DNA of 38,541 nt, from positions 1 to 38,541 of the forward strand of contig JAGUZU010000015.1 in NCBI GenBank assembly GCA_020060625.1, written 5' to 3'. Shown here in pieces: positions 14,530 to 29,335 of this stretch. Numbering within the stretch: the first letter of the stretch is position 1; each line of letters opens with the position of its first letter. Under the pieces are notes generated by a model. It ran no database searches and had not been told where the DNA came from. It saw only the letters and a list, made by a program, of their open reading frames with translations. Source of the DNA: Anaerolineales bacterium. GTDB taxonomy: Bacteria > Chloroflexota > Anaerolineae > Anaerolineales > Villigracilaceae. Both the position numbers and the translations under genes were made by a program.

Positions 14530-14570
14530 TTCGGCGCTGTCCCTTATTAATGAGGGAAAGTAGAGGAAAA

Positions 14571-15377
14571 ATGGCGCTGCGCGGAAATTTACGTGATTTT
14601 ACGATTACACAACTTTTAAACCTGATTAACCTTGCGGGTAAGACGGGAACGCTGGTGGTGGATGGGACTTCCGAGCAGGCGTATGTTTCCTTCCGTGAAG
14701 GCAAGCTTGCCTATGCCCGCGTCGGCAGGGAGGATGGAGGACTGGCGTCCGTTCTGCATAAGGCGAACAAGATCAACGCCAGCCAATACCGCGCCATTGC
14801 GGACCGGGCGGGTCAGATGACCGATAAGGAATTGGGTTTGCTTCTTATTAATGCCGGATACGTCACTCAGGACGATATCCTTTTGAATTTGCAGGCATAT
14901 TTCACGGATGTGGTACGCCGCTTGTTTACGTGGGTGGAGGGGATATTCCGTTTCGAGAACGATATGCTCCCGCCGGACGACCGCATCAACGTGCGGCTCG
15001 ACCTGGAGAACATCATCATCGAGGGGTCGCGCCAGCTTCGCGAGTTGGAGCAGTTGCAGGATGAAATTCCCAGCCTCGACATGGCTCTCAAGTTCACAGA
15101 CCGCCCGCTTACTAATGTGAATTTGAGCGTGGACGAATGGAAGGTTGTCAAGTTCGTTGACCCGAAGAATACGATGCGGCAGATCGCAGGCACGAACAAA
15201 CTGACGGAGATTGAAGTCCGCAGGATCGTGTATGGCTTGTTACAGGCGGGGTTGGTCGAACTGGTGCGCCCCGCCAATGCTCCTGTTCCGCCGAACCCGA
15301 AGATGTTCCCGACAGAGAACAAGGAAGAACAGAAAACTTTGATCAATAAACTGATCGGCCGCATTCGCACGATGTAG
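14571..15377 (+). CDS. DUF4388 (PATAN-like) domain protein
   Basis: 268 residues from ATG 14571 with AGAGGAAAA upstream (ATG 14550 lacks a site). The N-terminal domain (about 1-125) has the DUF4388 pattern: LRDFTITQLLNLINLAGKTG, then TLVVDGTSEQAYVSFREGKLAYA. Related PATAN domains occur in cyanobacterial and delta-proteobacterial signalling proteins, often next to Ras-like GTPases. A C-terminal winged-helix-like part (about 190-245) follows: DEWKVVKFVDPKNTMRQIA, then ITEIEVRRIVYGLLQAGLVELV. It is the first gene of the block and is followed by a GTPase 26 nt downstream, which suggests it is a partner for that protein. Exact role unknown. Confidence 0.82.
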   Translation: MALRGNLRDFTITQLLNLINLAGKTGTLVVDGTSEQAYVSFREGKLAYARVGREDGGLASVLHKANKINASQYRAIADRAGQMTDKELGLLLINAGYVTQDDILLNLQAYFTDVVRRLFTWVEGIFRFENDMLPPDDRINVRLDLENIIIEGSRQLRELEQLQDEIPSLDMALKFTDRPLTNVNLSVDEWKVVKFVDPKNTMRQIAGTNKLTEIEVRRIVYGLLQAGLVELVRPANAPVPPNPKMFPTENKEEQKTLINKLIGRIRTM

Positions 15378-15403: not shown

Positions 15404-15943
15404 ATGCAAACGGTCAAAATGGTAGTGACAGGTCCATTCAGCGCAGGCAAGACGCAGTTCATCCAATCGGTCAGCGAGATCGACGTGGTTGCCACCGAGC
15501 GCAGGATTTCCTCGGATGAAGAGCGCACCATCAAGTCGTCCACCACGGTGGCGATGGACTTTGGGCGCATCACTGTGGATGAAGACCTGGTGCTTTATCT
15601 CTTCGGCACGCCCGGTCAGAAGCGCTTCGATTTCATGTGGGAGATTCTCTCCGAAGGGATGCTGGGCTTCATCGTCATGGTGGATAGCACCCGCCCTGAA
15701 ACCTTCCGCGAGGCGCGTTCCATCCTTGAAACCTTCCGCGCGTACGCCCCCACGCCCTTCGTGGTCGCCGCGAACAAACAGGATATGGAGGATGCCTGGG
15801 AACTCGACGATATGCGCCATGCCTTGCGGCTGGATAAAAATACAAAACTGCTGCCCTGCGTCGCCACCGACCGCAGCTCCGTGAAGACCGCCTTGCTGGA
15901 GTTGCTGTACAGCATATTGCAGGAAATGGAATCCGGGAAATAG
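15404..15943 (+). CDS. Ras-like small GTPase (MglA/CvnD-type ATP/GTP-binding protein)
   Basis: 179 residues, a single G domain. The P-loop is GPFSAGKT (10-17), the switch region is YLFGTPGQKRFDFMW (G3 as GTPGQ), and the specificity motif is AANKQDM (G4, NKxD). The basal switch-I threonines appear in SSTTVAMDFG. AAGGATAAC precedes the ATG. Pairs of DUF4388 and this GTPase type are known from bacteria with multi-component signalling. It lies inside the block that includes a giant sensor kinase, so it may be a switch in the same circuit. No effector is identified from sequence. Confidence 0.85.
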   Translation: MQTVKMVVTGPFSAGKTQFIQSVSEIDVVATERRISSDEERTIKSSTTVAMDFGRITVDEDLVLYLFGTPGQKRFDFMWEILSEGMLGFIVMVDSTRPETFREARSILETFRAYAPTPFVVAANKQDMEDAWELDDMRHALRLDKNTKLLPCVATDRSSVKTALLELLYSILQEMESGK

Positions 15944-15964: not shown

Positions 15965-16765
15965 GTGTCTTCCATTACGACTGACCAGGGAATTGTTCAT
16001 TATGAAGTCTACGGGCGGGGACGCCCGGTAATTCTTTTACATGGCTGGCTCGGCTCATGGGGGTTGTGGCAGGAGACCATGGCATATTTGGGTGCCTTTT
16101 ACCGCACCTATGCGCTCGACTTTTGGGGGTTTGGCGAATCGGGAAAGAAACGTGAAACCTACGCTGTTTCGGATTTTGTAAGCCTCGTCAATCAATTCAT
16201 GGAGCAATTGGGAATCGTCCACGCGCCGCTGGTGGGACACAGCATGGGCGGCACGGTCAGCCTGTCTGTCGCCATTCAATACCCCGAACGGGTCAGCAAA
16301 GTGGTGGTGGTCGGCTCGCCCATGGTCGGCTCGTCGCTTGCGCCTCTGTTGAAACTGGCAGGGTATCGCCCCATCGCCTTTATGCTGTTCAACATGATGG
16401 GACCCTTCCGCGCCTTCATGAAATATTACTATTCGCGGATGATATGCAGTGACCCGCGCTTCCCCGACATGATGGACCGCGACCTTTCCCGCACCACCGT
16501 TGAATCCTTCCTGCGTTCCATCGCTTCGCTTCGCCGTACAGACCTGACTCCCATGCTGCCATCGGTCAAAGTCCCGGCGATGGGTATCTATGGCGACAAA
16601 GATCTCATCGTCCATCCCATGCAATGGAAGCCGATGCTGGAGGGAATCGATCACGCCATCATCGAACGGTTTCCCAATGCGGGGCATTTCCCGATGCTGG
16701 AAGAGCCGACCGAATTCAGCCAGAAATTAAAAAAATTCCTCGACCAAGATTTCCCAACTTCATGA
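15965..16765 (+). CDS. Alpha/beta hydrolase, Ser nucleophile
   Basis: 266 residues; a soluble alpha/beta-fold enzyme. The oxyanion loop is HGWLGSWG (26-33), the nucleophile elbow is VGHSMGG with Ser93, and the acid and base candidates are in YGDKDLI and GHFPMLEEP. The start is GTG 15965; there is no strong Shine-Dalgarno, so the exact start is uncertain. Its stop overlaps the next start. A paralogue at 28547 shares the first 60 residues closely but has Asp at the nucleophile position. Likely an esterase, lactonase or similar; substrate not known. Confidence 0.87.
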   Translation: MSSITTDQGIVHYEVYGRGRPVILLHGWLGSWGLWQETMAYLGAFYRTYALDFWGFGESGKKRETYAVSDFVSLVNQFMEQLGIVHAPLVGHSMGGTVSLSVAIQYPERVSKVVVVGSPMVGSSLAPLLKLAGYRPIAFMLFNMMGPFRAFMKYYYSRMICSDPRFPDMMDRDLSRTTVESFLRSIASLRRTDLTPMLPSVKVPAMGIYGDKDLIVHPMQWKPMLEGIDHAIIERFPNAGHFPMLEEPTEFSQKLKKFLDQDFPTS

Positions 16766-17370
16766 ACCCTGAAACATATTACTATCCCTCGAAAATGGGA
16801 AGGACGATTTTTCTTGGCATGGAGGAGGTGATCGGCAAAAGCGGGGTGGATGCCATCCTTCGCCTTGCCGGGCTTGAGCATCTTTTGGAAAACGTCGACC
16901 AAGGCGTCTCATTCGAGGAGGTGAGCCGCCTGCAAAGTGCGTTGGAGCAGGCATACGGTCCGCGCGGGGGACGCGGGCTGGCGTTACGGACGGGGCGTTC
17001 CTGTTTCAAATACGGGCTTAAGGAATACGGTTCCATGCTCGGTCTGACTGAAATGGCGTTCCGCCTGCTCCCGCTTTCCACGAAACTGCATAGAGGCGCG
17101 ATGATTTTTGCCGACCTCTTCAACAAGCACACCGACCAACGGGTGAAGGTGGAGGAAACGGAGAATAAACTCCTTTGGCATATCGAGCGTTGTCCGCTGT
17201 GCTGGCAGAGAGATGCGGAGGAGCCGGTCTGTCACCTGGCGGTTGGGCTTTTGCAGGAGTCCCTCTACTGGTTAAGCGGCGGCAAGGTCTTTCGTGTGGA
17301 GGAGACCGCCTGCATTGCCCGGGGCGACCGTTTTTGCACCATTACCATAGATAAAACCCCGCTCTCATAG
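16762..17370 (+). CDS. V4R (4-vinyl reductase-like) ligand-binding domain protein
   Basis: 202 residues starting at ATG 16762, overlapping the hydrolase stop by ATGA. The C-terminal half contains the V4R signature: HIERCPLCWQR (Cys144, Cys147), a third Cys157, then VEETACIARGDRFCTITI with Cys184 and Cys192. V4R domains bind small hydrophobic molecules, as in the phenol sensor DmpR/XylR and in BchJ. Here the domain stands alone without a DNA-binding or kinase part. Translation coupling to the hydrolase suggests the hydrolase makes or removes its ligand. That link is inference. Confidence 0.8.
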   Translation: MNPETYYYPSKMGRTIFLGMEEVIGKSGVDAILRLAGLEHLLENVDQGVSFEEVSRLQSALEQAYGPRGGRGLALRTGRSCFKYGLKEYGSMLGLTEMAFRLLPLSTKLHRGAMIFADLFNKHTDQRVKVEETENKLLWHIERCPLCWQRDAEEPVCHLAVGLLQESLYWLSGGKVFRVEETACIARGDRFCTITIDKTPLS

Positions 17371-17448: not shown

Positions 17449-18726
17449 ATGCTTAAGATCATCCTCCACGCGCCGAATCACATCATGCCTTTTTGTGAAC
17501 CTGCGCGTGAATTGCGGATTCAAAATTCGCCCCTGTGGCTGCATCAGCGAAACCTGCTCGCTCCCTACGTGACCCGCGAAATGGAGCTCAAACAGGGCGA
17601 ACGACTCCAGCCTGTGCGCGAACCCGCCATTGTATACCGCGACAACCTCTTTTTCGATGAGTTTTACATTCAGGCGTTCATGGAGAAGGCGCTCAAGCGC
17701 AACCGCCCCGTTCGCGCCGCGTTTCGGAGCGATGACCCTGCCTTTCGTGAACACGCTTTTCCCCTTTCCACGTCCTACACGCCTGCCGGAAGTTTGTACC
17801 TTGCCGACCTGTGGTATTACCCCAACGGTCCCGTAGCGGGCGCGGAGCCTTTGGTCATCGACCTCGATGCGCGCGAGATCGGCTATTACCATGTGCCAAC
17901 CTATATGGCAAACCAAACCGGCGATCTTGTATTCCAGGTTCCGTTGCGGAGTTTGATTGCCATTGACTCGTGGGTGCATGTCTTCATTGCGGATATGGTC
18001 TTCAGCCAATTCGCACGCGGCGCGCGTTTCGAAAAGCGCCTCAACGAAGACCTCGGCTTCAAATTGAAGATCATCGGCAAAGCCATTTATGAAGGAAGGC
18101 AGGTTCTTGAAAGTTCCGAGTTGGTCAAGATCGGAAAGGGTTGTGTGATCGACCCGAGCGCCGTCATTCACGGACCCGCCATTATCGGCGATAATGTCAC
18201 CATCAACGCGGGGACGGTGATCGAAAACTGCGTGATTGGGAATAACGTCAACATTTCGCAGGATGTGCAGCTGATGCTCTCCGTGGTGGGGGATGGGGCA
18301 TTCCTGCCTTTTCGCTCCGCCCTATTCATGACCACGCTGATGGAAAACAGCATGGTGGCGCAAAACACCTGCCTGCAAATGTGCGTGGTGGGGCGGAACA
18401 CCTTCATCGGCGCAGGCTCCACGTGGACGGACTATAACCTGATTCCCATTCCCATCCGCGCGAGGGATGGAAACGCGAATCTCAGCCCGTCCAACCGCCC
18501 GGTGTTGGGCGGATGCGTGGGACATAACTGCCGTATCGGCTCCGGCATGATCATTTACCCCGCGCGCACCATCGAATCGGACGTGGTGCTGGCGGCTTCG
18601 GCGGAAAGGCGCGTCATAGACCGCGACATCACCTTCGACCAGAGCGACCACCACCTTATGAAACTTGCCCACATGCACCAGACTCCATATCACAGGCATT
18701 TGAAAGCCGAGGTGGAGTCATGGTAA
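17449..18726 (+). CDS. Left-handed parallel beta-helix (hexapeptide-repeat) protein
   Basis: 425 residues. The first 200 residues are of a type I do not recognise and contain no NTP-transferase motif. From about residue 225 there are hexapeptide repeats, such as VIDPSAVIHGPAIIGDNVTI and VIENCVIGNNVNI, then CVVGRNTFIGAGSTWTD and CVGHNCRIGSGMIIYPA. These form the left-handed beta-helix known from acyl- and acetyltransferases and GlmU/LpxA-like enzymes. It lacks a Shine-Dalgarno and seems to be leaderless. It ends directly at the next gene's ATG (no gap). It could be an acyltransferase or sugar-modifying enzyme working with the neighbouring acyl-ACP reductase-like protein; function not known. 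Confidence 0.72.
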   Translation: MLKIILHAPNHIMPFCEPARELRIQNSPLWLHQRNLLAPYVTREMELKQGERLQPVREPAIVYRDNLFFDEFYIQAFMEKALKRNRPVRAAFRSDDPAFREHAFPLSTSYTPAGSLYLADLWYYPNGPVAGAEPLVIDLDAREIGYYHVPTYMANQTGDLVFQVPLRSLIAIDSWVHVFIADMVFSQFARGARFEKRLNEDLGFKLKIIGKAIYEGRQVLESSELVKIGKGCVIDPSAVIHGPAIIGDNVTINAGTVIENCVIGNNVNISQDVQLMLSVVGDGAFLPFRSALFMTTLMENSMVAQNTCLQMCVVGRNTFIGAGSTWTDYNLIPIPIRARDGNANLSPSNRPVLGGCVGHNCRIGSGMIIYPARTIESDVVLAASAERRVIDRDITFDQSDHHLMKLAHMHQTPYHRHLKAEVESW

Positions 18727-19815
18727 ATGGATAGCTTTGCTTTCATCATACATCCCATCGATCCCAAACGCGACGTCAGCCGCAAGTTTCCGTTTTTGGG
18801 AAGGACGCTTTCCGAAAAACAGATTGATTTCTTTTCCACCTTCTTTCCGCCGGTGTACATTTCGGAGATCGAAGGCATTACCTCGCAAATCACCGGCAAG
18901 GAGGTGAGAGGTTGGTTCATCGCCTGCCCGTACACGCCGCGCCGCATGATGCAGTTGCCGGAGCGCATGGTCTATCGTAAAATTGTCCAGACCGGGCGCA
19001 TGGCTGAGAAACTTGGAGCGAGTATCCTCGGTCTTGGGGCGTTCACTTCGGTGGTCGGCGATGCCGGTGTGACGATTGCCAATGCGCTGGACATTCCAGT
19101 CACCACAGGCGATTCCTATACGGTGGCGATTGCCGTGCAAGCCATACGGGACGCGGCAAAATTGATGGATATCAACATGGCGGACGCGACGGTGGCGGTC
19201 GTCGGCGCGACGGGCGCCATTGGGCGCGTCTGCGCTGAACTGATGGCTGGTGAGGCTGCCCGGACCTGGCTCATCGCCCGGGACGAGAAAAAGCTCGAGG
19301 CTCTGCGAGACAGGCTCGAGGTCCGGGCGCGAAGCGAATTGTGTGTCAGTACGAAGATGGATGTCTTGAAGGAAGCGCAGTTGATTCTGACGGTCACGAG
19401 TTCGATCCACGACGTTATCCAACCGGAGCATTTGCTGCCGGGGAGTGTTGTTTGCGATGTAGCCCGCCCCCGCGATGTTTCTGCAATGGTGGCGGCGGTC
19501 AGAGATGATATATTAGTGATTGACGGCGGCATGGTGGATGTGCCGGGTCCTGTGAATTTCAATTTCGATTTCGGCTTTCCGGAGGGTAAGGCGTATGCCT
19601 GCATGGCGGAGACGATTGCCCTGGCGCTGGAAGGACGTTTCGAGGATTATACGGTTGGCAGGGATATTACGCTCGAACGCGTGCGGGAAGTGACCGCGAT
19701 TGCCGAACGACACGGTTTTCGCATGAGCGGTTTCCGTTCGTTCGAGCGCGAAGTGACAGAAGAACAGATCGAAGCCGTTCGGCGCAATGCCCGCCTGGGC
19801 AGACGACGTGCTTAG
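18727..19815 (+). CDS. Rossmann-fold protein resembling cyanobacterial long-chain acyl-ACP reductase (AAR)
   Basis: 362 residues. Blocks appear in the same order as I remember in AAR of Synechococcus elongatus: RDVSRKFPF near the N-terminus, LGLGAFTSVVGDAG (about 101-114), TTGDSYTVAIAVQAI, the NAD(P)-binding ATVAVVGATGAIG (154-166), and AYACMAETIALALEG. The last holds Cys292, where AAR has its catalytic Cys (294 in S. elongatus numbering). VGRDITLERVREVTAIAERHGF near the C-terminus matches too. AAR reduces fatty acyl-ACP to aldehyde. Many databases call such proteins shikimate-dehydrogenase-like. The gene starts immediately after the beta-helix gene's stop. The AAR link rests on recollected alignment and needs confirming. 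Confidence 0.72.
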   Translation: MDSFAFIIHPIDPKRDVSRKFPFLGRTLSEKQIDFFSTFFPPVYISEIEGITSQITGKEVRGWFIACPYTPRRMMQLPERMVYRKIVQTGRMAEKLGASILGLGAFTSVVGDAGVTIANALDIPVTTGDSYTVAIAVQAIRDAAKLMDINMADATVAVVGATGAIGRVCAELMAGEAARTWLIARDEKKLEALRDRLEVRARSELCVSTKMDVLKEAQLILTVTSSIHDVIQPEHLLPGSVVCDVARPRDVSAMVAAVRDDILVIDGGMVDVPGPVNFNFDFGFPEGKAYACMAETIALALEGRFEDYTVGRDITLERVREVTAIAERHGFRMSGFRSFEREVTEEQIEAVRRNARLGRRRA

Positions 19816-19826
19816 AGGAGGCTCAA

Positions 19827-20732
19827 ATGGGTAATGCCCGCCTATTGGTAGTGGAAGACGATGTAGATATCGCCAACATGCTCAAAATTTATTTCACAGG
19901 TTTGCAATACGCTGTGGATGTGGCGAATCGCGGACAGGATGCGCTGGAAAAAACCAGGCAGGTCCTGCCGCATTTGATCGTGCTGGATATCATGCTGCCG
20001 GATATTGACGGATACGAGGTCTGCCGCACACTGCGGACGAACACGCGAACCAGTCACATCCCTGTGATCTTTCTGACGCAAAAGGATGAACGCAGCGACA
20101 AACTTCAGGGTCTCGAACTTGGCGCGGATGATTACATTACCAAGCCTTTCGATATCGAGGAGTTGAAATTGCGCGTGCAGGGAGCCATTCGCCGCGCGGA
20201 ACGCGAAAGCCTCACGGACCCGCGTTCGGGCTTGCCCGCGGGGCGTTTGATCGAGGAGCAGTTACGGCGCATCATCCGCGAGAAGGATTGGGCGCTGCTC
20301 GACCTGCGCGTGAACAATTTCGAGGCGTTCAAGGATGTGTATGGGTTCGTGGCGGGGGATGACGTGATGCGCTTTGCGGCGATGCTGATCGGCGAGGTGG
20401 TGGATGAACTGGGGACGCCGAACGATTTCATCGGTCATGCCGGAGGCGATAACTTCATCATCATCACGACGAACGAGGCGGCGCCGTTGATCCGTCAAAA
20501 GGTCAAGGAACGCTTCGCGGAGGAAGTGCAGAGTCACTACAATTTTATAGACCGCCAGCAGGGCTTCATTCAGTCGCCCAAGGCGGAGGGGGGCGTCGAG
20601 AAGGTGGGTTTTATGACATTTTCTGCGGGAATCGTCTCGCCTGACGTGCATTCCTTTGCGGATATTCGCGAAATTACAGAATTGGCGGCTGAGGCTCGAA
20701 GACAGGACGCTGCAACTGCCTCAACCGCTTGA
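19827..20732 (+). CDS. Response regulator with degenerate GGDEF domain
   Basis: 301 residues, with TAGAGGAGG before ATG 19827. The receiver domain (1-118) is intact: Asp54 in LIVLDIMLPD, Thr84 and Lys106 in DDYITKPFD. The second domain (about 130-290) follows the GGDEF fold (LLDLRVNNFEAFKDVYGFVA) but its signature is GGDNF (206-210). The catalytic Glu is Asn, so diguanylate cyclase activity is unlikely. It may act as a c-di-GMP or GTP sensor or scaffold. It is 18 nt from the giant kinase gene, so it is a probable phosphotransfer partner. Confidence 0.85.
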   Translation: MGNARLLVVEDDVDIANMLKIYFTGLQYAVDVANRGQDALEKTRQVLPHLIVLDIMLPDIDGYEVCRTLRTNTRTSHIPVIFLTQKDERSDKLQGLELGADDYITKPFDIEELKLRVQGAIRRAERESLTDPRSGLPAGRLIEEQLRRIIREKDWALLDLRVNNFEAFKDVYGFVAGDDVMRFAAMLIGEVVDELGTPNDFIGHAGGDNFIIITTNEAAPLIRQKVKERFAEEVQSHYNFIDRQQGFIQSPKAEGGVEKVGFMTFSAGIVSPDVHSFADIREITELAAEARRQDAATASTA

Positions 20733-20749: not shown

Positions 20750-23700
20750 ATGGTTCCTGGATTGGGCATTAGCCTGTTTGTTGCCGGGCTGGTGATCGTT
20801 GCGCTAGCCTGGGTAATTCTGCGTATGTTGTCGCTGACGCGAAAAACAGCGCAGGCTGATGCCGGCTCCCGGGCGTTCCCCGAAGCGACAAAATCCAATG
20901 ATGCGGTACTCATCCTCCAGCCCGGCGGGCGGGTGGAGTATATCAGCGCGCAGGCAAGGGCTTATTTCAATTTGCGCGAGAATGAGCCGTACGATATCGA
21001 ACGCCTCGCGCGGCATGTGCGCCCGGCGGGCGATTTCCTGGATCTGTGCGCCATGCCCGGCTCGAAGCGCGTTTCCATTAGCGGCAGGCTGGTGGAAATT
21101 GCCTCCTATGAAGTGCCGGGCGCCTACCCGATGATGCTTATTTCCCTGCGCGCCAAGGATTTGACACCCGCGTTGGAGCAGGAGAATGGGGCGGCGAGTG
21201 AAATCCTACAGGTTGCCACGGAATTCAGCCAGGCAATCGCCGCAAGCCTCGATCTCGATGCCACCATCCGCTCCATTTTGGAGAATGTCAGCCGTCTCGT
21301 CCCTTCGGACGTGCTGGAATTGAAGTTGTGGAACGATGAACGCCAGGGGCTGATGCCGTATCGCTACCAACAGTCGGGTATGAGCCGGGTGGTGACTGCT
21401 TCTCTCTCTCAATTTGGCAGTCTTACTGATCAATTGGTTGCGAAGCGCAAGCCTGTTTTGCTTGAAGACGCGCGTTCCCGCGAAGAGCTCGCAACAGGCA
21501 ATGAGTTGACACCCATCCTGTCCTATTTGGGCATTCCCCTCATCGCGGGCGGGAAACTGGTTGGCGCGTTGGAAGCGGGGCAGTTGAGCAGCGGCGCATT
21601 CGGACAACACGACCTCGACCTGCTGCACATCATCTCCGGACAAGCCGCCGTTGCGCTCCGAAATGCCAAACTGTATGAAGAGGAACAAAAACGGGGCGCC
21701 GAGCTTGCCGGTTTGGCAAACATCAACCAGGTGCTTGGCTCGGTCCAGGATGTGCAGGATGTCTTCGCGCGTTTGATGGAAAGCGTCGCTCCGCTGTTTC
21801 AAGCGGAGATCATGGGTTTCCTGCTTTATGACGAAAGCAGGCGCGCGCTCGAAGGAAAAATTCCCTTTCGCGGAATACCGCCCCACGTTGTCGAAATCTA
21901 CCGCTCGTCCATTCCGCAGGATGGACCCGCCCAGGAAATCATCTCCGGTCAACAGCCCATCATCACGCGCGATGCGATGAACGACCAGAACTGGCGCGCG
22001 CTCGGGCTTTCGGATGTGGCGACGGCAGCCAGCTTGCGCGACAACGCCCTCGTGCCGCTTCTTTCTTCGGGACGCATGCTCGGCTACTTCCAGGTTGGAC
22101 ACCACACTCGCGGCGTTTCCTCCTTCACCCCGGACGAAATCCGTTTGATGAACATCGTGGCGAGCCAGGCGGCGGCGATTATCGAGAACGTCCTCCTTGT
22201 GCAGCAGGCGCGCGCCCGCGCCCAACGCGCCGACGCCCTGCGCCGCATTGCCAGCCTTTCGGCATCTTCCGCCACGCTGGAAGAAACCTTGAAATATTCC
22301 ATGCAGGAACTGGCACGCCTCTTCCAGGCGGACGCGGGCGCGGTCTTCCTCATGGATGAGACTCGCGGCGTCCTGCGGCTGAACCGGGAATCCATGTTCG
22401 GCGTTTCGGACGAGCTCAGCAATTCGTTCATTCAGATTTTCATTGACGACCCCAATTACCGCTACACGGTTTCAGGAAGCCGCAAGTCCTTCCTTTCCGG
22501 GCGTCTGAGCAGCGACAGAAGAATCCTGCCCGCCTACCGCCCGCTGGCAACCGCGCTCTCGATGGAATCCGCCATTGTCGTTCCGCTTGTGGCGCGCGAA
22601 CGCAGCATCGGCGAATTGATGATCGGAAGCAAAAAAGCGGACCACTTCAATTCCTACGATCTGCAGATCGTTTCCACGGCTGCCGGGCAGATGGCTGCCG
22701 CTGTGGAATCGGCGGGACTGCTTGCCCAAACGGATGAATCCCTGCGCCGCCGCATGGATCGCTTGAGCGAGATCGCGCGAGTCAGCCGGGAACTGGGCGC
22801 GTCATTGGATGTAACGCACCTGCTTCAAATCGTCCATGACGAAAGTATGCGTAACATGCGGGCGGATTGTTCGTCGGTTCTTCTGTTCGAACAGAATGCC
22901 GATTCCGCCGAACCGCGCATTCAGCAGGCTGTGGGGTGCGAGCGTCAGCGTGGATTAAGCCTGGTCGAGCAAACAGCCATAAGGAAGAGCGAGCCGTACA
23001 TCGTCCCCGATTATTTGCGCGGCGACGACCTGCCCCCGCATGAGGGGGTGCATTCCTCCATCATTATTCCGATTACTTATCAAACGCGGACGATTGGTTT
23101 GATCGACATCCACTCCGGGCGCCCCGGCGCTTTTACGCCGGAATCCGCCGAGTTCCTGCAAATGCTGGCGATACAGGCTGGCATTGCGTTGAACAACGCG
23201 CAAAAATATCAAGCAGAAAAACGGCACGGCGAGTTGATGCGCCGCCGCTCGGACACGCTGGTGCGCCTGACCGATGCCAGTTTCAGCCTGGGACATGACC
23301 AGCCGCTCGACCAGGCGCTGCAAACCATTGCGCTTGGCATCCGGGATTCGACGCCGTTCCGCGTGGTGTTGGTGAGCATCGTCGAGCCGGAGACGGAGTT
23401 GCTGCGCCGCGTGACGGCGCTGGGCATTCCGCAGGAGACGCTGAACGAACTGCTTGCCACCCGGCAGCCGCTTGCGAGCGTTCAGCAACTCATGCGCCCG
23501 GAATTCAAGATCAGCCGTTCGTATTTCATCCCTGCCGATCAAACGCCGGTCATACCGCCTGATCTGCACATGGTCACGCTGGATATGACCGCATCGGAGA
23601 CGAAGACCGCCGAGGCATGGGACCCGGACGATTTCCTGCTGATCCCGCTGGAAAATGCCGAGGGACGCATCATCGGGTTGATTAGTTTGGATGATCCCTC

Positions 23701-26700
23701 GAACGGGCTGCGCCCGGACAAGGCGGCGATAGAGGCATTGGAAGTGTTCGCTTCGCAGGCTTCGCTGCTGGCGGGCAATATCCTGCGGCAGGATGAACTG
23801 CGCGCCCACATCGACTCGCTTTCCTCCGCGCTGGATCGCCAGCAAAAACTGCTCGGCATGACCCAGAACGACCTGCCGGTTTTGCTTCGCAAAGACCTCG
23901 AGCAGACCATCGCCTTGCATAACCTGGATCGGCGCGCCCAGCGCGTGCGCGCAGGGTTGGCGATCACCGAATCCGTCAGCCGCCAGTTGGACGCTTCTTC
24001 CGCGCTCTCCGCGTTGGGGCGCGAAACTCTGACCCAGCTTGGCATGTCGGTGGCGCTTGTGGCGGAGAACACGCCCGAAGGTCCGCGCCTCCTGCATGTG
24101 ATGGGAAGCCTGCCGCGCTCGACGAACGTCGAGGCATTGTTCGGTCAGCGGAATCCGCTGCGGGTGTGTTTGCAAAACGGCGTTCCCGTTTTGATCCCCA
24201 ACCTGGACGATAACGATGAATGGCGCGACGCCGCCCTGCTCACGTCCCTGCGCGCGAAAGGCGTGATCTGCCTGCCCATCCTTGTGGAAAACAAGCCCGT
24301 GGCGGCAATGCTGGCGGCAAGCCCCGAACCCATGCCGGCGTTCACGGAAGAAGACTCGCAGGTCTACGCCCAAATCTCGCGGCAGACGTCGCTCATCCTT
24401 CAGAATATTTCGCTGTTGAACCAGACCCGCCGCCGTTTGGACGAGGTGAATCTCCTGCTCGAGTTCAGCCGCCAGTTGTCGGGTATGGACGCCGATGCGA
24501 TTGTCAAATCCCTGCTGGAAAGCGCGCGCCGCGTCATTCAACATGCTCACGCGGGCGCGGTTCTCTTGTGGAACGCCAAGACCGAAACGCTTGCTCCTCG
24601 CGCGGTTTCAGGCTACGTGGATAACGGCAGGATGATGAACATCAATTATCGCGCCGGCGAAGCATTGCCCGGCGCCGCGTTCATGAACCGCCGCGCGCGC
24701 CGCGTGGATGAGATCAACTTTGCGCGCGATTACAACCTGGGCGCGGAAAACCTCGCCGTCTATCGCGAAGCCACCGGCGGGCGTTTGCCCGTCTCTTGCC
24801 TGCTTGTGCCGATTGTGGCGAGCGAGCAAAATTTGGGTTTGCTCGTTTTGGATAACTTCAACACAACCGGAGCCTTCCGCGCCGAGGATGAAGCGCTCCT
24901 TCTTTCGCTGGCGCAGCAGGTCGCCCTGTCGCTGGATAACCTCCGCCTCGTGCAGGCGACGCAGGAACGCGCCGGGCAACTGGAGGCATTGAACGACGCC
25001 TCCGTATCCCTGACCTCGAGCCTGCGCAGCGACGAGTTGACCAAAGCCCTGCTCGATCAGTTAAAGCCCATCCTCCCCTTCGATACCGCCACCCTGCTCT
25101 TGCGGGAAAAAGACCGCCTCACCGTTGCATCCACGCGCGGGTTCCCGGATGCGGAGGAGAGGCTGGGGCTTTCCGTCCCGGTTTCAGACAGCGCCCTGTT
25201 CAAGGAAATGGCGCAGTCGGGTCAGCCCATCCTCGTCAAGGATGTGCGCGAAGACCCGCGCTTTCCGCCCGTCGAAACGCCGCGTCTTTCCTGGCTTGGC
25301 ATCCCGTTGATCTCGAAGGGCGAGCTGGTCGGTGTCATCACCGCGGAGAAATGGCAGGCGAACTTCTACACCCGCGAACAGGTGCAGGTCGGCTTGACCT
25401 TCGCCAGCCAGTCCGCTGTTTCATTGGATAATGCCCGCCTGTACGAAGACAGCGTGAAACGCGCCACCGAACTGGATCAACGCTCCCAGCGTTTGACCGC
25501 CCTGAACCGCTTCGCCTCCGCCCTGACCCGCTCACTGGATACCGACCAGATTCTGAATCTGACCGCCGAAGAAGTGTTCAAAGGCTTGACCGCCAGCCGC
25601 GTCTCCGTAGTGACTTTTGAACGCGGTCAGGCATGGTGGAAATTCACCATACCCCGCATGCGCGCCAAATTCCCGCGCATCCTGCCCGATGCGCCCATCT
25701 TCAACCGCCTGCGCGAATCGTTGGGTATCTTCAACACCGACGACGTGCGCGGCGAACCCGACCTTGTTGCCCTGGCGGAAATGCTTGGCGAAAGCACAAG
25801 GGCGTTGCTGATCCTCCCGCTCGCCAGCGGACAGACGCTGACGGCGCTGGTCTTCGTCCAAATGACGGGCGAGACCCGCTTCGGAATCAACGAACTTGAA
25901 GTGGCGCGCACGATCACCAACCAGGCGACCATCGCGCTCGAAAACGCTCGCTTGTACCAATCCTCCGTCCGCACGGCGGAACGGTTTGCCGTTCTCAACG
26001 AGACGAGCTCGCTCGTCAGCGCGACCCTCGACCCGGATGAAATCTACGTCTCCGTTCACAAGGCGGCGGAACGGCTGATGCCGTTGGACACCTTCGTCAT
26101 CACCCTCTTCGATGAAGAAAAGAACGAGATCGACCCGGTCTATTTGTATGAACGCGGAAAACGCTATACCGCGGAACGCGTCCCGTTTGGGAAGGGCATG
26201 AGCAGCGAAGTGATCAAAACTGCGAAGCCCATCATCGTTTCCGGTCTCGAAAATGTCGGCGCCATGGAGGCTGCCCGGTTCGGCGAAGACTCGGAAACGA
26301 TCCAATCCATTGTGGCGGTTCCGATGATTTTGGGGAACAAGGCGCTCGGTATGCTCTCGGCGCAGAGCTACAAAGTGGACGTGTACAGCGAAGAGGATAT
26401 GCAAATCCTCGGCACGCTGGCGAATCAGGCGATTGTCGCCATCCAAAACGGACGGCTCTTCGCCGAAACGCAGGAACTGGCTTCCCAACTCGAATTGCGC
26501 GTGATGGAACGCACCGCCCAGTTGCAGCGCGAACAGCAAAATACGGAAACCCTGCTCCGCATTCTTACGGAGGTCTCATCCAGCCTCGATCTGGACCGCG
26601 CCTTGAACCGCACGTTGTCCCTGTTGAACGATGCCATCGGCGCGGAACAAGGCACGATTCTGCTCCTCCACGCAGATGACAACCTCCTGCACTATCGCGC

Positions 26701-28165
26701 GGGCTATGGCTATCTTTCCGACCGTTCCCAGCCGGATCGGCGCGGGTTTACGCTAAAGGTCGGGGAAGGGCTGGCAGGCTGGGTTGTCAAGAATCGCGAG
26801 GCGGTTCTTATCAGTGACCTGCATCAGGATTCGCGTTGGGTCCGGAATCCATCCGCAGGTCAGGACCATCGAAGCGCGATTGCGGTTCCCATGCTGGTCG
26901 GCGAGGATGTGATCGGCGTCCTCATGGTCTTCCAGCGCACGGTGAATTTCTTCAGCGCGGAAATGCTCAACCTCGTCAAGGCGATTGCCAGTCAGGTGGC
27001 GGTGGCGATCAACAACGCGCATCTCTATGAATTGATCCGCGACCAGGCGGAACGCCTCGGCGTGATGCTCCGCAAAGAGCAGGAGGAAGCCAGCCGTTCG
27101 CAAGCCATCCTCGAAGCGGTGGCAGACGGCGTGCTTGTCACCGGCGGCGACAATCGCATTACCTTCGTCAACGCCTCCGCTGTGGATATTTTGGATGTTG
27201 ATTCCGGGCGGCTGACAGGCAGTTCGCTGGAAGGGTTTGCGGGGCTGTTCGGCAAAGCCGCCGGCGACTGGATTGCGACCATCCGCCGCTGGTCTGAAAG
27301 CCCGTCCTCGCATCAATCCGGCGATACGTATGCGGAACAACTTGAGTTGGAAAACGGACGCATTGTGCTTGTCCACCTTGCGCCGGTGATTCTGCAAAAC
27401 GATTTCCTCGGCACGGTGTCCATCTTCCGCGACATCACGCACGAGGTCGAAGTGGACCGCCTGAAGTCCGAGTTTGTGGCGACGGTCAGTCACGAACTGC
27501 GCACGCCCATGACCGCCATTAAAGGCTATGTGGATATCCTCACCATGGGCGCGGCTGGCGCTTTGAACGAAAACCAGATGCACTTCCTCGATGTGGTTCG
27601 CAACAACATCGAACGCCTCAACATCCTCGTCAGCGACCTGCTGGATATTTCCCGCATCGAATCGGGACGCATCACACTCGACCAGAGACCGATCAAACTG
27701 CCCGAAATCGCCGAGGATGTCGTTGCCGAAGCCCTGCGCCGTTCGCAAACCGAGAGCAAACCCATTGCGCTTTCCTTGAACGCGCCCAAGAACCTGCCAA
27801 CGGTGGTTGGAGACGCCGACCGCGTGCGGCAGATTTTGAGCAACCTTGTGAACAATGCCTACAACTACACGCCCAACAACGGAACCATCCATGTAAACAT
27901 CCACCCATTGAACGGCGAATTGCAGGTGGACGTGGAGGATAACGGAGTCGGCATTGCCCCTGAAGACCAGGACCGCATATTCGAACGATTCTTCCGCGGC
28001 GAACACCCGCTTGTGCTTTCCACTCCCGGAACCGGGCTGGGGCTTCCCATTGTCCGCCAGTTGGTGGAAATGCACAACGGGCGTATTTGGATGAAAAGCA
28101 CGGGCGTGCCGGGTGAAGGCTCCACGTTTTCATTCACCCTGCCCATCTACAATAACGGAGATTAA
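20750..28165 (+). CDS. Giant multi-GAF hybrid-type sensor histidine kinase (about 11 GAF domains)
   Basis: 2471 residues. One membrane segment lies at about 5-25 (LGISLFVAGLVIVALAWVIL), then a PAS-like domain (50-140). Successive GAF domains begin near residues 154, 324, 497, 671, 837, 1068, 1233, 1414, 1585, 1748 and 1935. Each starts with a recognisable L-x-x-x-S-x-x-L-D helix (for example FSQAIAASLDLDATI and LNETSSLVSATLDPDEI). A PAS domain (about 2120-2230) is followed by the HisKA box SHELRTPMTAIKGY with His2248 and an HATPase_c domain containing NAYNYTPN, DNGVGIAPEDQDRIFERFF and GTGLGLPIVRQ. Most histidine kinases carry one or two GAFs. Cytoplasmic except the N-terminal anchor. The next gene is its receiver. 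Confidence 0.93.
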   Translation: MVPGLGISLFVAGLVIVALAWVILRMLSLTRKTAQADAGSRAFPEATKSNDAVLILQPGGRVEYISAQARAYFNLRENEPYDIERLARHVRPAGDFLDLCAMPGSKRVSISGRLVEIASYEVPGAYPMMLISLRAKDLTPALEQENGAASEILQVATEFSQAIAASLDLDATIRSILENVSRLVPSDVLELKLWNDERQGLMPYRYQQSGMSRVVTASLSQFGSLTDQLVAKRKPVLLEDARSREELATGNELTPILSYLGIPLIAGGKLVGALEAGQLSSGAFGQHDLDLLHIISGQAAVALRNAKLYEEEQKRGAELAGLANINQVLGSVQDVQDVFARLMESVAPLFQAEIMGFLLYDESRRALEGKIPFRGIPPHVVEIYRSSIPQDGPAQEIISGQQPIITRDAMNDQNWRALGLSDVATAASLRDNALVPLLSSGRMLGYFQVGHHTRGVSSFTPDEIRLMNIVASQAAAIIENVLLVQQARARAQRADALRRIASLSASSATLEETLKYSMQELARLFQADAGAVFLMDETRGVLRLNRESMFGVSDELSNSFIQIFIDDPNYRYTVSGSRKSFLSGRLSSDRRILPAYRPLATALSMESAIVVPLVARERSIGELMIGSKKADHFNSYDLQIVSTAAGQMAAAVESAGLLAQTDESLRRRMDRLSEIARVSRELGASLDVTHLLQIVHDESMRNMRADCSSVLLFEQNADSAEPRIQQAVGCERQRGLSLVEQTAIRKSEPYIVPDYLRGDDLPPHEGVHSSIIIPITYQTRTIGLIDIHSGRPGAFTPESAEFLQMLAIQAGIALNNAQKYQAEKRHGELMRRRSDTLVRLTDASFSLGHDQPLDQALQTIALGIRDSTPFRVVLVSIVEPETELLRRVTALGIPQETLNELLATRQPLASVQQLMRPEFKISRSYFIPADQTPVIPPDLHMVTLDMTASETKTAEAWDPDDFLLIPLENAEGRIIGLISLDDPSNGLRPDKAAIEALEVFASQASLLAGNILRQDELRAHIDSLSSALDRQQKLLGMTQNDLPVLLRKDLEQTIALHNLDRRAQRVRAGLAITESVSRQLDASSALSALGRETLTQLGMSVALVAENTPEGPRLLHVMGSLPRSTNVEALFGQRNPLRVCLQNGVPVLIPNLDDNDEWRDAALLTSLRAKGVICLPILVENKPVAAMLAASPEPMPAFTEEDSQVYAQISRQTSLILQNISLLNQTRRRLDEVNLLLEFSRQLSGMDADAIVKSLLESARRVIQHAHAGAVLLWNAKTETLAPRAVSGYVDNGRMMNINYRAGEALPGAAFMNRRARRVDEINFARDYNLGAENLAVYREATGGRLPVSCLLVPIVASEQNLGLLVLDNFNTTGAFRAEDEALLLSLAQQVALSLDNLRLVQATQERAGQLEALNDASVSLTSSLRSDELTKALLDQLKPILPFDTATLLLREKDRLTVASTRGFPDAEERLGLSVPVSDSALFKEMAQSGQPILVKDVREDPRFPPVETPRLSWLGIPLISKGELVGVITAEKWQANFYTREQVQVGLTFASQSAVSLDNARLYEDSVKRATELDQRSQRLTALNRFASALTRSLDTDQILNLTAEEVFKGLTASRVSVVTFERGQAWWKFTIPRMRAKFPRILPDAPIFNRLRESLGIFNTDDVRGEPDLVALAEMLGESTRALLILPLASGQTLTALVFVQMTGETRFGINELEVARTITNQATIALENARLYQSSVRTAERFAVLNETSSLVSATLDPDEIYVSVHKAAERLMPLDTFVITLFDEEKNEIDPVYLYERGKRYTAERVPFGKGMSSEVIKTAKPIIVSGLENVGAMEAARFGEDSETIQSIVAVPMILGNKALGMLSAQSYKVDVYSEEDMQILGTLANQAIVAIQNGRLFAETQELASQLELRVMERTAQLQREQQNTETLLRILTEVSSSLDLDRALNRTLSLLNDAIGAEQGTILLLHADDNLLHYRAGYGYLSDRSQPDRRGFTLKVGEGLAGWVVKNREAVLISDLHQDSRWVRNPSAGQDHRSAIAVPMLVGEDVIGVLMVFQRTVNFFSAEMLNLVKAIASQVAVAINNAHLYELIRDQAERLGVMLRKEQEEASRSQAILEAVADGVLVTGGDNRITFVNASAVDILDVDSGRLTGSSLEGFAGLFGKAAGDWIATIRRWSESPSSHQSGDTYAEQLELENGRIVLVHLAPVILQNDFLGTVSIFRDITHEVEVDRLKSEFVATVSHELRTPMTAIKGYVDILTMGAAGALNENQMHFLDVVRNNIERLNILVSDLLDISRIESGRITLDQRPIKLPEIAEDVVAEALRRSQTESKPIALSLNAPKNLPTVVGDADRVRQILSNLVNNAYNYTPNNGTIHVNIHPLNGELQVDVEDNGVGIAPEDQDRIFERFFRGEHPLVLSTPGTGLGLPIVRQLVEMHNGRIWMKSTGVPGEGSTFSFTLPIYNNGD

Positions 28166-28540
28166 ATGGCGCGAATACTGATTGCAGAAGACGAACCCGA
28201 TATCCGTGAATTGGTGGCATTCACCCTGCGCTTTGCAGGGCATGAAGTCATCACGTCCTCCAACGGCGAAGAGGCGCTCCACCAGGCATCCCAATCCGTC
28301 CCCGACCTCATCCTCATGGATGTGCGTATGCCGAAAATGACCGGCTACGATGCCTGCCGCGCAATGAAAGCCGACTCCAACCTGAAGGACATCCCCGTCG
28401 TTTTCCTGTCCGCCAAAGGACAGGATTCCGAGATTCAAACCGGACTGGATGCGGGCGCGGAGGAATACCTGCTCAAACCGTTCGCGCCGGACCAATTGGT
28501 GGAACGCGTCAAAGACATTCTTTCGAAATTTGGAAAATAA
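28166..28540 (+). CDS. Single-domain response regulator (CheY/Spo0F-like)
   Basis: 124 residues: one intact receiver with Asp52 (LILMDVRMPK), Ser82 in the Thr/Ser position (FLSAKG) and Lys104 (EEYLLKPFAP). The start abuts the kinase stop codon with no gap, and CGGAGAT in the kinase's last codons serves as ribosome-binding site. It lacks an output domain. It is the natural phospho-acceptor of the giant kinase, and may relay to the GGDEF-like regulator or to the hydrolases and GTPase in the same block. Confidence 0.92.
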   Translation: MARILIAEDEPDIRELVAFTLRFAGHEVITSSNGEEALHQASQSVPDLILMDVRMPKMTGYDACRAMKADSNLKDIPVVFLSAKGQDSEIQTGLDAGAEEYLLKPFAPDQLVERVKDILSKFGK

Positions 28541-28546
28541 TCCTTA

Positions 28547-29335
28547 ATGAGCGCGATCATTCTCGACGGTTCGATGGTGCATTACGAGGCTCTGGGACGC
28601 GGACGCCCCATTGTCTTCCTGCACGGCTGGGTCGGCTCATGGCGTTACTGGATCAACGCCATGCAAGTCGCATCCACATCCTTCCGCGCCTACGCGCTCG
28701 ATCTCTACGGTTTCGGCGACACCACCCGCGACCCGCTGCGCTACTCCCTCGACCAGCAGGCGGACCTCCTCAACCAATTCCTCGAAGAGATGGGCATTGG
28801 CAAAGTCGCCATCGTTGGGCATGACCTCGGAGCGCTGGTTGGCTTTACATTTCTTAAACGCTTCCACGCCAGTGTGGACCGCGTCATGGCGATCAACTGT
28901 CCCCTTGACTATGAAGCGGTCAACACCCGCATGAGGACGGCTCCCGCCACCGAACTTGCGGAATGGTTGACATCCAAATCGCCGGACGCCATGTCCGCCC
29001 TTGCAGACGCCTCCAAAGTGGACCCGCAGGCTGTTACCGCCTCCCTCGCCGGACTCCAAGCCGACAACTGGCTCGCCGGCATCCGAAACCTCGGCGTGCC
29101 GTGCCTGTTCGTATACGGCTCGAACGACGCCGCCCTCACCCTCCCTTCGCAGGAAAAAGTGGATTCCCTTCCCATGCACATGCACCAGATCAACCTCGAA
29201 GGCGCGGGTCACTTCCCCATGCTCGATAACCCCGCCCTGTTCAACCGCCTGCTCACCGACTTCCTCGCATTGGATTCCGGGGCAAGTCCTCGTGAAATGC
29301 AATTGAAAGAGGAGTGGAAGCGCAGAGTTCGCTGA
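28547..29335 (+). CDS. Alpha/beta hydrolase with Asp nucleophile position
   Basis: 262 residues, closely similar over the first 60 to the hydrolase at 15965 (HYEALGRGRPIVFLHGWVGSW against HYEVYGRGRPVILLHGWLGSW), including the oxyanion loop. The nucleophile elbow reads VGHDLGA with Asp93, in the exact position of Ser93 in the paralogue. Asp nucleophiles occur in haloalkane dehalogenases and epoxide hydrolases. The final acid/base motifs are VYGSNDAAL and GAGHFPMLDNP. It starts 7 nt after the receiver gene; no strong Shine-Dalgarno. It ends the block. Substrate unknown; an Asp nucleophile suggests a dehalogenase- or epoxide hydrolase-type reaction. Confidence 0.87.
   Translation: MSAIILDGSMVHYEALGRGRPIVFLHGWVGSWRYWINAMQVASTSFRAYALDLYGFGDTTRDPLRYSLDQQADLLNQFLEEMGIGKVAIVGHDLGALVGFTFLKRFHASVDRVMAINCPLDYEAVNTRMRTAPATELAEWLTSKSPDAMSALADASKVDPQAVTASLAGLQADNWLAGIRNLGVPCLFVYGSNDAALTLPSQEKVDSLPMHMHQINLEGAGHFPMLDNPALFNRLLTDFLALDSGASPREMQLKEEWKRRVR

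What the first reader, a model, noticed from the sequence alone, without database searches (positions are those of the whole stretch)
18727..19815. Cyanobacterial acyl-ACP reductase-like protein in a non-photosynthetic Chloroflexota context
Motif order and a Cys at the AAR catalytic position (Cys292 in YACMAETI) fit long-chain acyl-ACP reductase, an enzyme tied to alkane biosynthesis in cyanobacteria. No aldehyde-deformylating oxygenase is in the window. The adjacent beta-helix gene (zero gap) may use the product. Such an enzyme could make fatty aldehydes or alcohols for membrane lipids.
Basis: partly seen in the sequence, partly recalled or inferred. Interest (0 to 1): 0.6.

Follow-up and report, generated by a model that had tools for sequence, protein, structure and literature searches.

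The report
Fatty-acyl reductase in conserved signalling island
This gene encodes a real relative of the cyanobacterial enzyme that turns activated fatty acids into aldehydes, but in these non-photosynthetic bacteria it sits inside a conserved block of signalling genes rather than in an alkane- or wax-making pathway, so its product and purpose remain to be found.

Summary
ORF 18727-19815 is an AAR-fold acyl-thioester reductase: its model matches cyanobacterial AAR at Z 38.7 (2.3 A, 323 residues), and Cys292 aligns with catalytic Cys294 of AAR and Cys296 of PigE, kept in 35 of 35 relatives. The protein is as close to PigE as to AAR, lies far below both curated cut-offs, and lacks AAR's Arg73 and Tyr247. 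ADO was found in 0 of 199 class genomes. This AAR type is in 58 of 199, so a recent cyanobacterial import is not indicated. Wax ester supply is unlikely: a second, fused AAR type tracks the wax synthase gene (25 of 27), this type does not (7 of 58). The new point is context: all 58 genomes also have the neighbouring beta-helix gene, usually in an island with a Ras-like GTPase, PATAN and V4R proteins, a hydrolase, a regulator and a giant GAF histidine kinase. Some genomes keep the island without this AAR. Most likely it makes a long-chain aldehyde as an optional part of that island; substrate and product fate are inferred.

The parts
18727..19815 (+). AAR-fold acyl-thioester reductase (NAD(P)H), 362 aa
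19600..19602 (+). codon of Cys292, the acyl-accepting catalytic cysteine by alignment
19204..19224 (+). dinucleotide loop GATGAIG (residues 160-166)
   Evidence: the three Gly are kept in 35 of 35 rows; 80 of 80
17449..18726 (+). sugar-nucleotidyltransferase-like domain plus left-handed beta-helix (hexapeptide) protein, 425 aa (called LbH here)
16762..17370 (+). V4R-domain protein with conserved Cys cluster; start chosen here inside ORF 16624-17370, overlapping the hydrolase stop as in relatives
15965..16765 (+). alpha/beta hydrolase, nucleophile motif GHSMGG (28 of 28 rows)
15404..15943 (+). Ras-like small GTPase (NKQD in 32 of 32 rows)
14550..15377 (+). DUF4388 protein (that DUF4388 is the PATAN domain is recalled)
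19827..20732 (+). response regulator with degenerate GGDEF domain (GGDNF)
20750..28165 (+). giant histidine kinase, 2471 aa, about 11 GAF domains, PAS, HisKA, HATPase
28166..28540 (+). CheY-like response regulator, found after the kinase in several relatives
28547..29335 (+). second alpha/beta hydrolase, GHDLG where G-x-S-x-G is expected

Best explanation
The protein is an NAD(P)H-dependent acyl-thioester reductase of the AAR/PigE fold family. By homology an acyl chain is passed from acyl-ACP (less likely acyl-CoA) to Cys292, and hydride from NAD(P)H at the GATGAIG loop releases it as an aldehyde. It works as an optional accessory of a conserved Chloroflexota island (PATAN, Ras-like GTPase, hydrolase, V4R, LbH, response regulator, giant GAF kinase), and the aldehyde or its alcohol is most likely used for a lipid or signal made or sensed by that island. 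Shown here: fold, catalytic residues, conservation, gene context, co-occurrence, no ADO found. Inferred: activity, carrier, chain length, cofactor, fate of the aldehyde, any contact with the signalling proteins.
For: Fold match to AAR Z 38.7, 2.3 A, 323 residues (model pLDDT 93.4). Cys292 and Glu295 35 of 35, GxxGxxG 35 of 35, Arg185 (AAR R189) 33 of 35, position 312 (R314) Arg or Lys in 35 of 35. Relatives with experiments: AAR (PMC7089970, passages), PigE (PMC8341465, whole text; active in lysate, not as purified protein), TamH, whose reductase domain makes a C12 aldehyde from C12-ACP but gave no product with C12-CoA (PMC9594044, passages). Context: 58 of 58 genomes with this AAR also have LbH, Fisher p 5e-41. 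In 80 named loci, counting those with room: LbH 78 of 79, regulator 77 of 77, kinase 75 of 75, GTPase 60 of 67, PATAN 58 of 64, hydrolase 64 of 71, V4R 51 of 73; LbH-AAR gap 4 nt or less in 57 of 78. These 80 are the best of at least 588 relatives, so mostly close ones. Purifying selection.
Against: No activity is shown for any member of this type. Tyr247 of AAR, whose Ala mutant loses stearoyl-CoA binding (PMC7089970), is Arg in 34 of 35 rows, so substrate binding may differ. Nine of 67 genomes have LbH without this AAR; in the eight of them that I fetched most of the island is there, so the island does not need it. In two of 24 fetched loci the AAR lies away from the island (L044, L047). No obvious aldehyde-using enzyme is in the island. 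Co-occurrence tests ignore shared ancestry.
Confidence: 0.66

Rival explanations
1. It is an AAR-family reductase acting on a non-fatty or specialised thioester (short or branched chain, polyketide or peptidyl carrier) and not a long-chain acyl-ACP reductase.
For: Closest by score is PigE, whose substrate is a 3-acetyloctanoyl thioester (PMC8341465). The next fold match after AAR is the carmabin TAD domain, Z 35.3. Tyr247 of the AAR acyl tunnel is replaced.
Against: No carrier protein, PKS or NRPS was recognised among the 16 window proteins scanned against Pfam; the window's first 9 kb and last 5 kb were not scanned. The tree pattern fits descent within the class.
Confidence: 0.2
2. The reductase fold is used as a sensor: acyl loading of Cys292 reports the acyl-ACP pool to the GTPase and kinase, and aldehyde release is secondary.
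For: Gene context is mostly signalling.
Against: The catalytic Cys, its Glu and the dinucleotide loop are kept; nothing shows contact with the signalling proteins; the island is found without it in some genomes.
Confidence: 0.07
3. It supplies fatty alcohol for wax esters.
For: WS/DGAT genes occur in the class, 41 of 199 genomes over the cut-off.
Against: WS/DGAT gave no match in the 17 genomes of the window's family. It occurs in 7 of 58 genomes with this AAR, and in 2 of 53 that have this type only, but in 25 of 27 with the fused AAR type.
Confidence: 0.04
4. It is the first step of alkane synthesis as in cyanobacteria.
For: Fold and catalytic Cys.
Against: ADO family PF11266 in 0 of 199 class genomes, S. 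elongatus control rings; ADO-contact Arg73 is Pro in 33 of 35 rows.
Confidence: 0.02

Closest known systems
Cyanobacterial long-chain acyl-ACP reductase (AAR, TIGR04058, PDB 6jzq/6jzu/6jzy)
   Same: Fold (Z 38.7), catalytic Cys and following Glu, GxxGxxG loop, Arg185 and basic residue 312 for the NADPH phosphate
   Different: 30% identity; 121 of 449.7 bits; Arg73 and Tyr247 not kept; no ADO found; different gene context
PigE N-terminal thioester reductase domain (NF053554, PDB 4ppm); TamH reductase domain
   Same: PigE is the best score in NCBIfam and PDB searches; same Cys motif CMAET; thioester to aldehyde chemistry reported
   Different: No aminotransferase domain here; 229.6 of 850 bits
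Carmabin TAD (PDB 9e4s; also 9e56)
   Same: Same fold, 9e4s Z 35.3, 3.1 A, 342 residues; the title of 9e56 names a disulfide between Cys2238 and dephospho-CoA
   Different: A domain of a multidomain protein, judged by its residue numbers; 18% identity; no paper naming it among the 8 listed
Fused AAR proteins of Chloroflexota (about 690-770 aa)
   Same: AAR domain about 35-44% identical with the same Cys motif
   Different: Extra N-terminal domain of about 300 aa (15 of 16 fetched loci), none of the island around most of them, tied to WS/DGAT; separate clade, SH-aLRT 100
MglA-type GTPase loci with PATAN neighbours
   Same: Small GTPase near a PATAN protein, reported for some MglA Group 1 and 5 members (PMC4316618, passages)
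   Different: Here with V4R, hydrolase, LbH, AAR and a GAF kinase; a search for AAR, GTPase, V4R and Chloroflexota terms listed two papers, neither holding 'acyl-ACP reductase'

Membership tests
Cyanobacterial AAR (TIGR04058) | curated score cut-off 449.7 bits | tested here: not met
   121.2 bits
Cyanobacterial AAR (TIGR04058) | catalytic Cys294 | tested here: met
   C292, 35 of 35 rows, 80 of 80 loci
Cyanobacterial AAR (TIGR04058) | dinucleotide loop GxxGxxG | tested here: met
   35 of 35
Cyanobacterial AAR (TIGR04058) | three basic residues for NADPH phosphate (R189, R193, R314) | tested here: inconclusive
   first and third kept; second is Lys here but Ala in 14 and Pro in 3 of 35 rows
Cyanobacterial AAR (TIGR04058) | Tyr247 of the acyl tunnel | tested here: not met
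   Arg in 34 of 35 rows
Cyanobacterial AAR (TIGR04058) | ADO partner and contact residue Arg73 | tested here: not met
   ADO 0 of 199; Pro in 33 of 35 rows. The Arg79 and Lys80 positions are largely kept: Arg or Lys in 29 and 34 of 35
Cyanobacterial AAR (TIGR04058) | reduces long-chain acyl-ACP | not testable with these tools
   needs an assay
PigE (NF053554) | curated cut-off 850 bits | tested here: not met
   229.6 bits
PigE (NF053554) | fused aminotransferase domain | tested here: not met
   single domain of 362 aa
AAR-fold acyl-thioester reductases (wide sense) | whole-length fold match | tested here: met
   Z 38.7, 2.3 A, 323 of 362 residues
AAR-fold acyl-thioester reductases (wide sense) | acyl-accepting Cys between NAD(P)H and acyl sites | tested here: met
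   by alignment; geometry in the model not inspected
AAR-fold acyl-thioester reductases (wide sense) | aldehyde product | not testable with these tools
   needs an assay

The most novel reading that the evidence does not exclude
The island is a bacterial lipid-switch system: the reductase makes a long-chain aldehyde or alcohol that is bound by the V4R protein, the bacterial relative of the palmitate-binding TRAPP subunit, and so sets the Ras-like GTPase, PATAN protein and multi-GAF kinase. This would join fatty-acid status to cell-surface or polarity control in Anaerolineae.
Probability: 0.13. Interest if true: 0.82.

Novelty: new variant of a known kind. Interest (0 to 1): 0.47.

Why it matters
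The papers seen here treat AAR as the first enzyme of cyanobacterial alkane synthesis, and its other characterised relatives (PigE, TamH) serve pyrrole pigment pathways. Here many genomes of one bacterial class carry their own AAR subfamily in a conserved block with a Ras-like GTPase and a V4R protein, with no alkane partner found and mostly no wax synthase. That gives a testable entry into what fatty aldehydes do in Anaerolineae, into the use of Ras-like GTPases with V4R proteins in bacteria, and into the diversity of acyl reductases. The side result, a fused AAR type that tracks wax ester synthase, points to a candidate acyl reductase for wax esters in Chloroflexota.

Tried and rejected
Alkane route: rejected, ADO 0 of 199 class genomes (of 14 controls two ring, one over the cut-off).

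Wax ester route for this gene: rejected on distribution. PF03007 rang in none of the 14 control genomes, so that search has no positive control of its own; its 41 hits over the cut-off, with E down to 3.1e-65, stand in for one.

Cyanobacterial gene transfer: not supported. The tree groups rows by family code, but no species tree was made, and AAR and PigE sit on very long branches whose places are unsure.

Fate of the aldehyde from neighbours of displaced AAR copies (L044, L047, L166): no common partner. L166 has an acyltransferase gene next to the AAR and a patatin gene near; L044 gave three proteins without a Pfam match and a JetD; L047 an FAD oxidoreductase, an acetyltransferase and others.

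Identity of the N-terminal domain of the fused type: no Pfam match in four proteins, and no PDB match better than E 0.045.

Literature on this AAR in Chloroflexota: 2 of 2 papers listed, neither on the subject by title; 12 of 310 listed, none of the 12 holding 'acyl-ACP reductase'; 10 of 15 listed; 2 of 2 listed. Nothing on it was seen, in a library without most subscription papers. Carmabin TAD: 8 of 324 listed, none holding 'carmabin'.

Sorting of hits: of the rows I took as this type those at 47% identity or more over most of the protein (58 genomes; G028 and G122 are cut by contig ends) and as fused type those at 44% or less with E below 1e-59 (27 genomes; 13 of these were fetched, 16 loci). 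G049 was first counted as this type (59 and 26) and moved after one search showed its fragment to be up to 73% identical to fused proteins; one search has the final counts. The tree still labels its LbH (L164) as having an AAR elsewhere; it was not rerun. The 67 LbH genomes include G028 (a 77-residue match at a contig end) and G058 (a weaker, partial match, not fetched). Of the loci L005-L033, L019 and L020 were left out of alignment A1 because the listing counted a stop in the match. L064 (434 aa) lacks the N-terminal domain.

V4R counts by BLAST may miss divergent copies.

Full report
What was claimed.

The observation. The ORF is there, 362 aa, directly after the stop of the upstream gene. 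phmmer against the PDB finds PigE 4ppm (E 2.2e-38) and S. elongatus AAR 6jzq (E 1.1e-27) with two further AAR sequences; the next hit is at E 0.0015. In the alignment Cys292 falls on AAR Cys294 and PigE Cys296, the residues named as catalytic or conserved in PMC7089970 (passages) and PMC8341465 (whole text). An AlphaFold2 model (pLDDT 93.4, pTM 0.91) matches AAR 6jzu at Z 38.7, 2.3 A over 323 residues, then the carmabin TAD domain at up to Z 35.3; the best row of any other kind is at 14.5. The wide-sense family call is therefore firm. dN/dS against five relatives is 0.06-0.14, with dS above 1 in four of the five pairs.

Residue tests (35 rows, 80 named loci, at least four of them the same contigs as rows of the 35 by length). 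Kept: Cys292 35/35 and 80/80; Glu295 35/35 and 80/80; the three glycines of the loop 35/35 and 80/80; Arg185 (AAR R189) 33/35 and 79/80; Arg or Lys at 312 (R314) 35/35 and 80/80; Lys85 (K80) 33/35 and 80/80. Not kept: AAR Arg73, an ADO contact, is Pro in 33/35 and 74/80; AAR Tyr247 is Arg in 34/35 and 80/80; AAR R193 varies. The protein scores 121.2 bits on the AAR equivalog model (cut-off 449.7) and 229.6 on PigE (cut-off 850). It is a separate branch of the fold family and is not AAR in the strict sense.

Distribution. The window's genome has one copy (the other three rows there are weak, at 35% identity or less over short stretches). Of 199 genomes of the class, 58 carry this single-domain type (sorted by hand). 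All 17 genomes of the window's family that were searched carry it, and none of the 7 other genomes of the order that were searched do. Named contigs with the nearest copies are mostly labelled Anaerolineales, Anaerolineae or Chloroflexi MAGs, one Candidatus Villigracilaceae (best 80 of at least 588). Outside the class, the 301-genome phylum search found a single-domain copy in one genome, G208 (55% identity), by my sorting; G394 and G430, with open frames of 432 and 390 aa, were not examined. The tree mostly groups copies by family code, which fits descent within the class. ADO was found in 0 of 199, and the host shows no PF00124 reaction-centre gene.

The island. Around the gene lie, all on the + strand, DUF4388/PATAN, a Ras-like GTPase, an alpha/beta hydrolase, a V4R protein, the beta-helix protein (LbH), the AAR, a response regulator with a degenerate GGDEF (GGDNF; GGDEF itself in 1 of 33 rows, five rows' motifs not printed), a 2471-aa histidine kinase with about 11 GAF domains, a CheY-like protein and a second hydrolase. 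In 24 fetched loci of varied families, LbH lies next to the AAR upstream in 22 and the regulator downstream in 21. In the 80 named loci the counts, over those with room, are LbH 78/79, regulator 77/77, kinase 75/75, GTPase 60/67, PATAN 58/64, hydrolase 64/71, V4R 51/73. LbH was found in 67 of 199 class genomes and the AAR in 58, always with LbH somewhere in the genome (58 of 58; Fisher 5e-41). V4R proteins of this profile are in 98 of 199 genomes, often in several copies, so V4R alone is no marker of the island.

The AAR is optional. Nine LbH genomes lack this AAR; three of them (G049, G133, G181) have a fused AAR elsewhere. In the eight fetched (L154-L160, L164) the LbH is followed by the regulator as the next recognised island gene, 33 to 544 nt on; whether an unrelated small gene lies in the longer gaps was not checked. 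Most other island genes are there, but L159 shows no kinase and L156 no first hydrolase. On the LbH tree the seven labelled absences need 5 changes, of which starred branches force 3; gain and loss cannot be told apart. In four loci outside the class (L167-L170) the order LbH, regulator, giant kinase is found without an AAR between; two further loci (L171 of G208 outside the class, L172 of G388 in the window's order) have LbH without regulator and kinase next to it. So the LbH-regulator-kinase core is found more widely than the AAR in it.

What LbH is. Its model (pLDDT 78.5, parts below 50) matches the sugar-1-phosphate nucleotidylyltransferase/acetyltransferase ST0452 best (Z 24.5, 5.0 A over 303 residues; another chain 3.2 A over 294 at Z 24.0), then GDP-mannose pyrophosphorylase and eIF2B subunits. 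By sequence essentially only the hexapeptide part is recognised, so the nucleotidyltransferase half has probably lost its activity; this is inference, its active-site residues were not tested. Nothing links it to aldehyde chemistry.

The second AAR type. Proteins of about 690-770 aa carry an unknown N-terminal domain and a C-terminal AAR domain about 42% identical to this one, in a clade of its own. In the class they occur in 27 genomes, and 25 of these have WS/DGAT; of the 58 genomes with the window's type 7 do. In G282, G379 and G410 such a gene lies about 0.3 kb (matched parts) from a WS/DGAT gene (coordinates). Outside the class the tie is looser: many genomes there have a fused AAR and no WS/DGAT match, G305 and G297 among them. 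This makes wax ester supply a fair guess for the about 750-aa form and a poor one for the window's gene. The contig lengths of G305, G349 and G297 are those I recall for Chloroflexus aurantiacus, a Roseiflexus and Herpetosiphon aurantiacus; no call gives these names.

Mechanism. Knowledge of the family: acyl transfer to the Cys, then hydride from NAD(P)H gives an aldehyde (PMC7089970, PMC9594044, passages). TamH worked with acyl-ACP and NADH, not with C12-CoA or NADPH, and purified PigE gave no product, so carrier and cofactor differ within the family and cannot be set by sequence here. The use of the product is unknown. The V4R fold is shared with the TRAPP subunit that binds palmitate (PMC10933270, passages), and the V4R profile here reaches phenol sensors such as MopR only weakly (E 0.025). 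That is why I name a lipid switch as the boldest open reading, at low probability.

Limits. Most genomes are drafts, so absences are soft. Fisher tests ignore ancestry. Hits were sorted by hand, as told under Tried and rejected. I know of no assay of a member of this type.

Noticed in passing
L056-L063, L065-L068, L072, L173-L176; G282, G379, G410: Fused AAR proteins with an N-terminal domain of about 300 aa that has no Pfam match and no convincing PDB match; 25 of 27 class genomes with them have WS/DGAT, and in three genomes outside the class the two genes' matched parts are about 0.3 kb apart, though other genomes there have the fused AAR without WS/DGAT. Candidate wax-ester acyl reductase of Chloroflexota.
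   Followed up: partly
L167, L168, L169, L170: The triad LbH, regulator, giant GAF kinase is found outside the class without an AAR (4 of 6 loci fetched for this).
   Followed up: partly
window 28547-29335: Second hydrolase of the island has GHDLG, an Asp where the serine nucleophile is expected, as in haloalkane dehalogenases and epoxide hydrolases (that comparison is recalled; sequence).
   Followed up: no
window 16762-17370: V4R protein keeps several cysteines (C147, C157, C184 invariant in 14 rows, C144 nearly so), which could be a metal site as in other V4R/TRAPPC3 proteins (PMC10933270 passages).
   Followed up: no
window 19827-20732: Response regulator whose GGDEF motif is GGDNF here; GGDEF itself is in 1 of 33 rows, five rows' motifs not printed.
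   Followed up: partly
L044 2285-3388: A JetD (Wadjet) protein gene lies about 2.8 kb from a displaced AAR copy.
   Followed up: no
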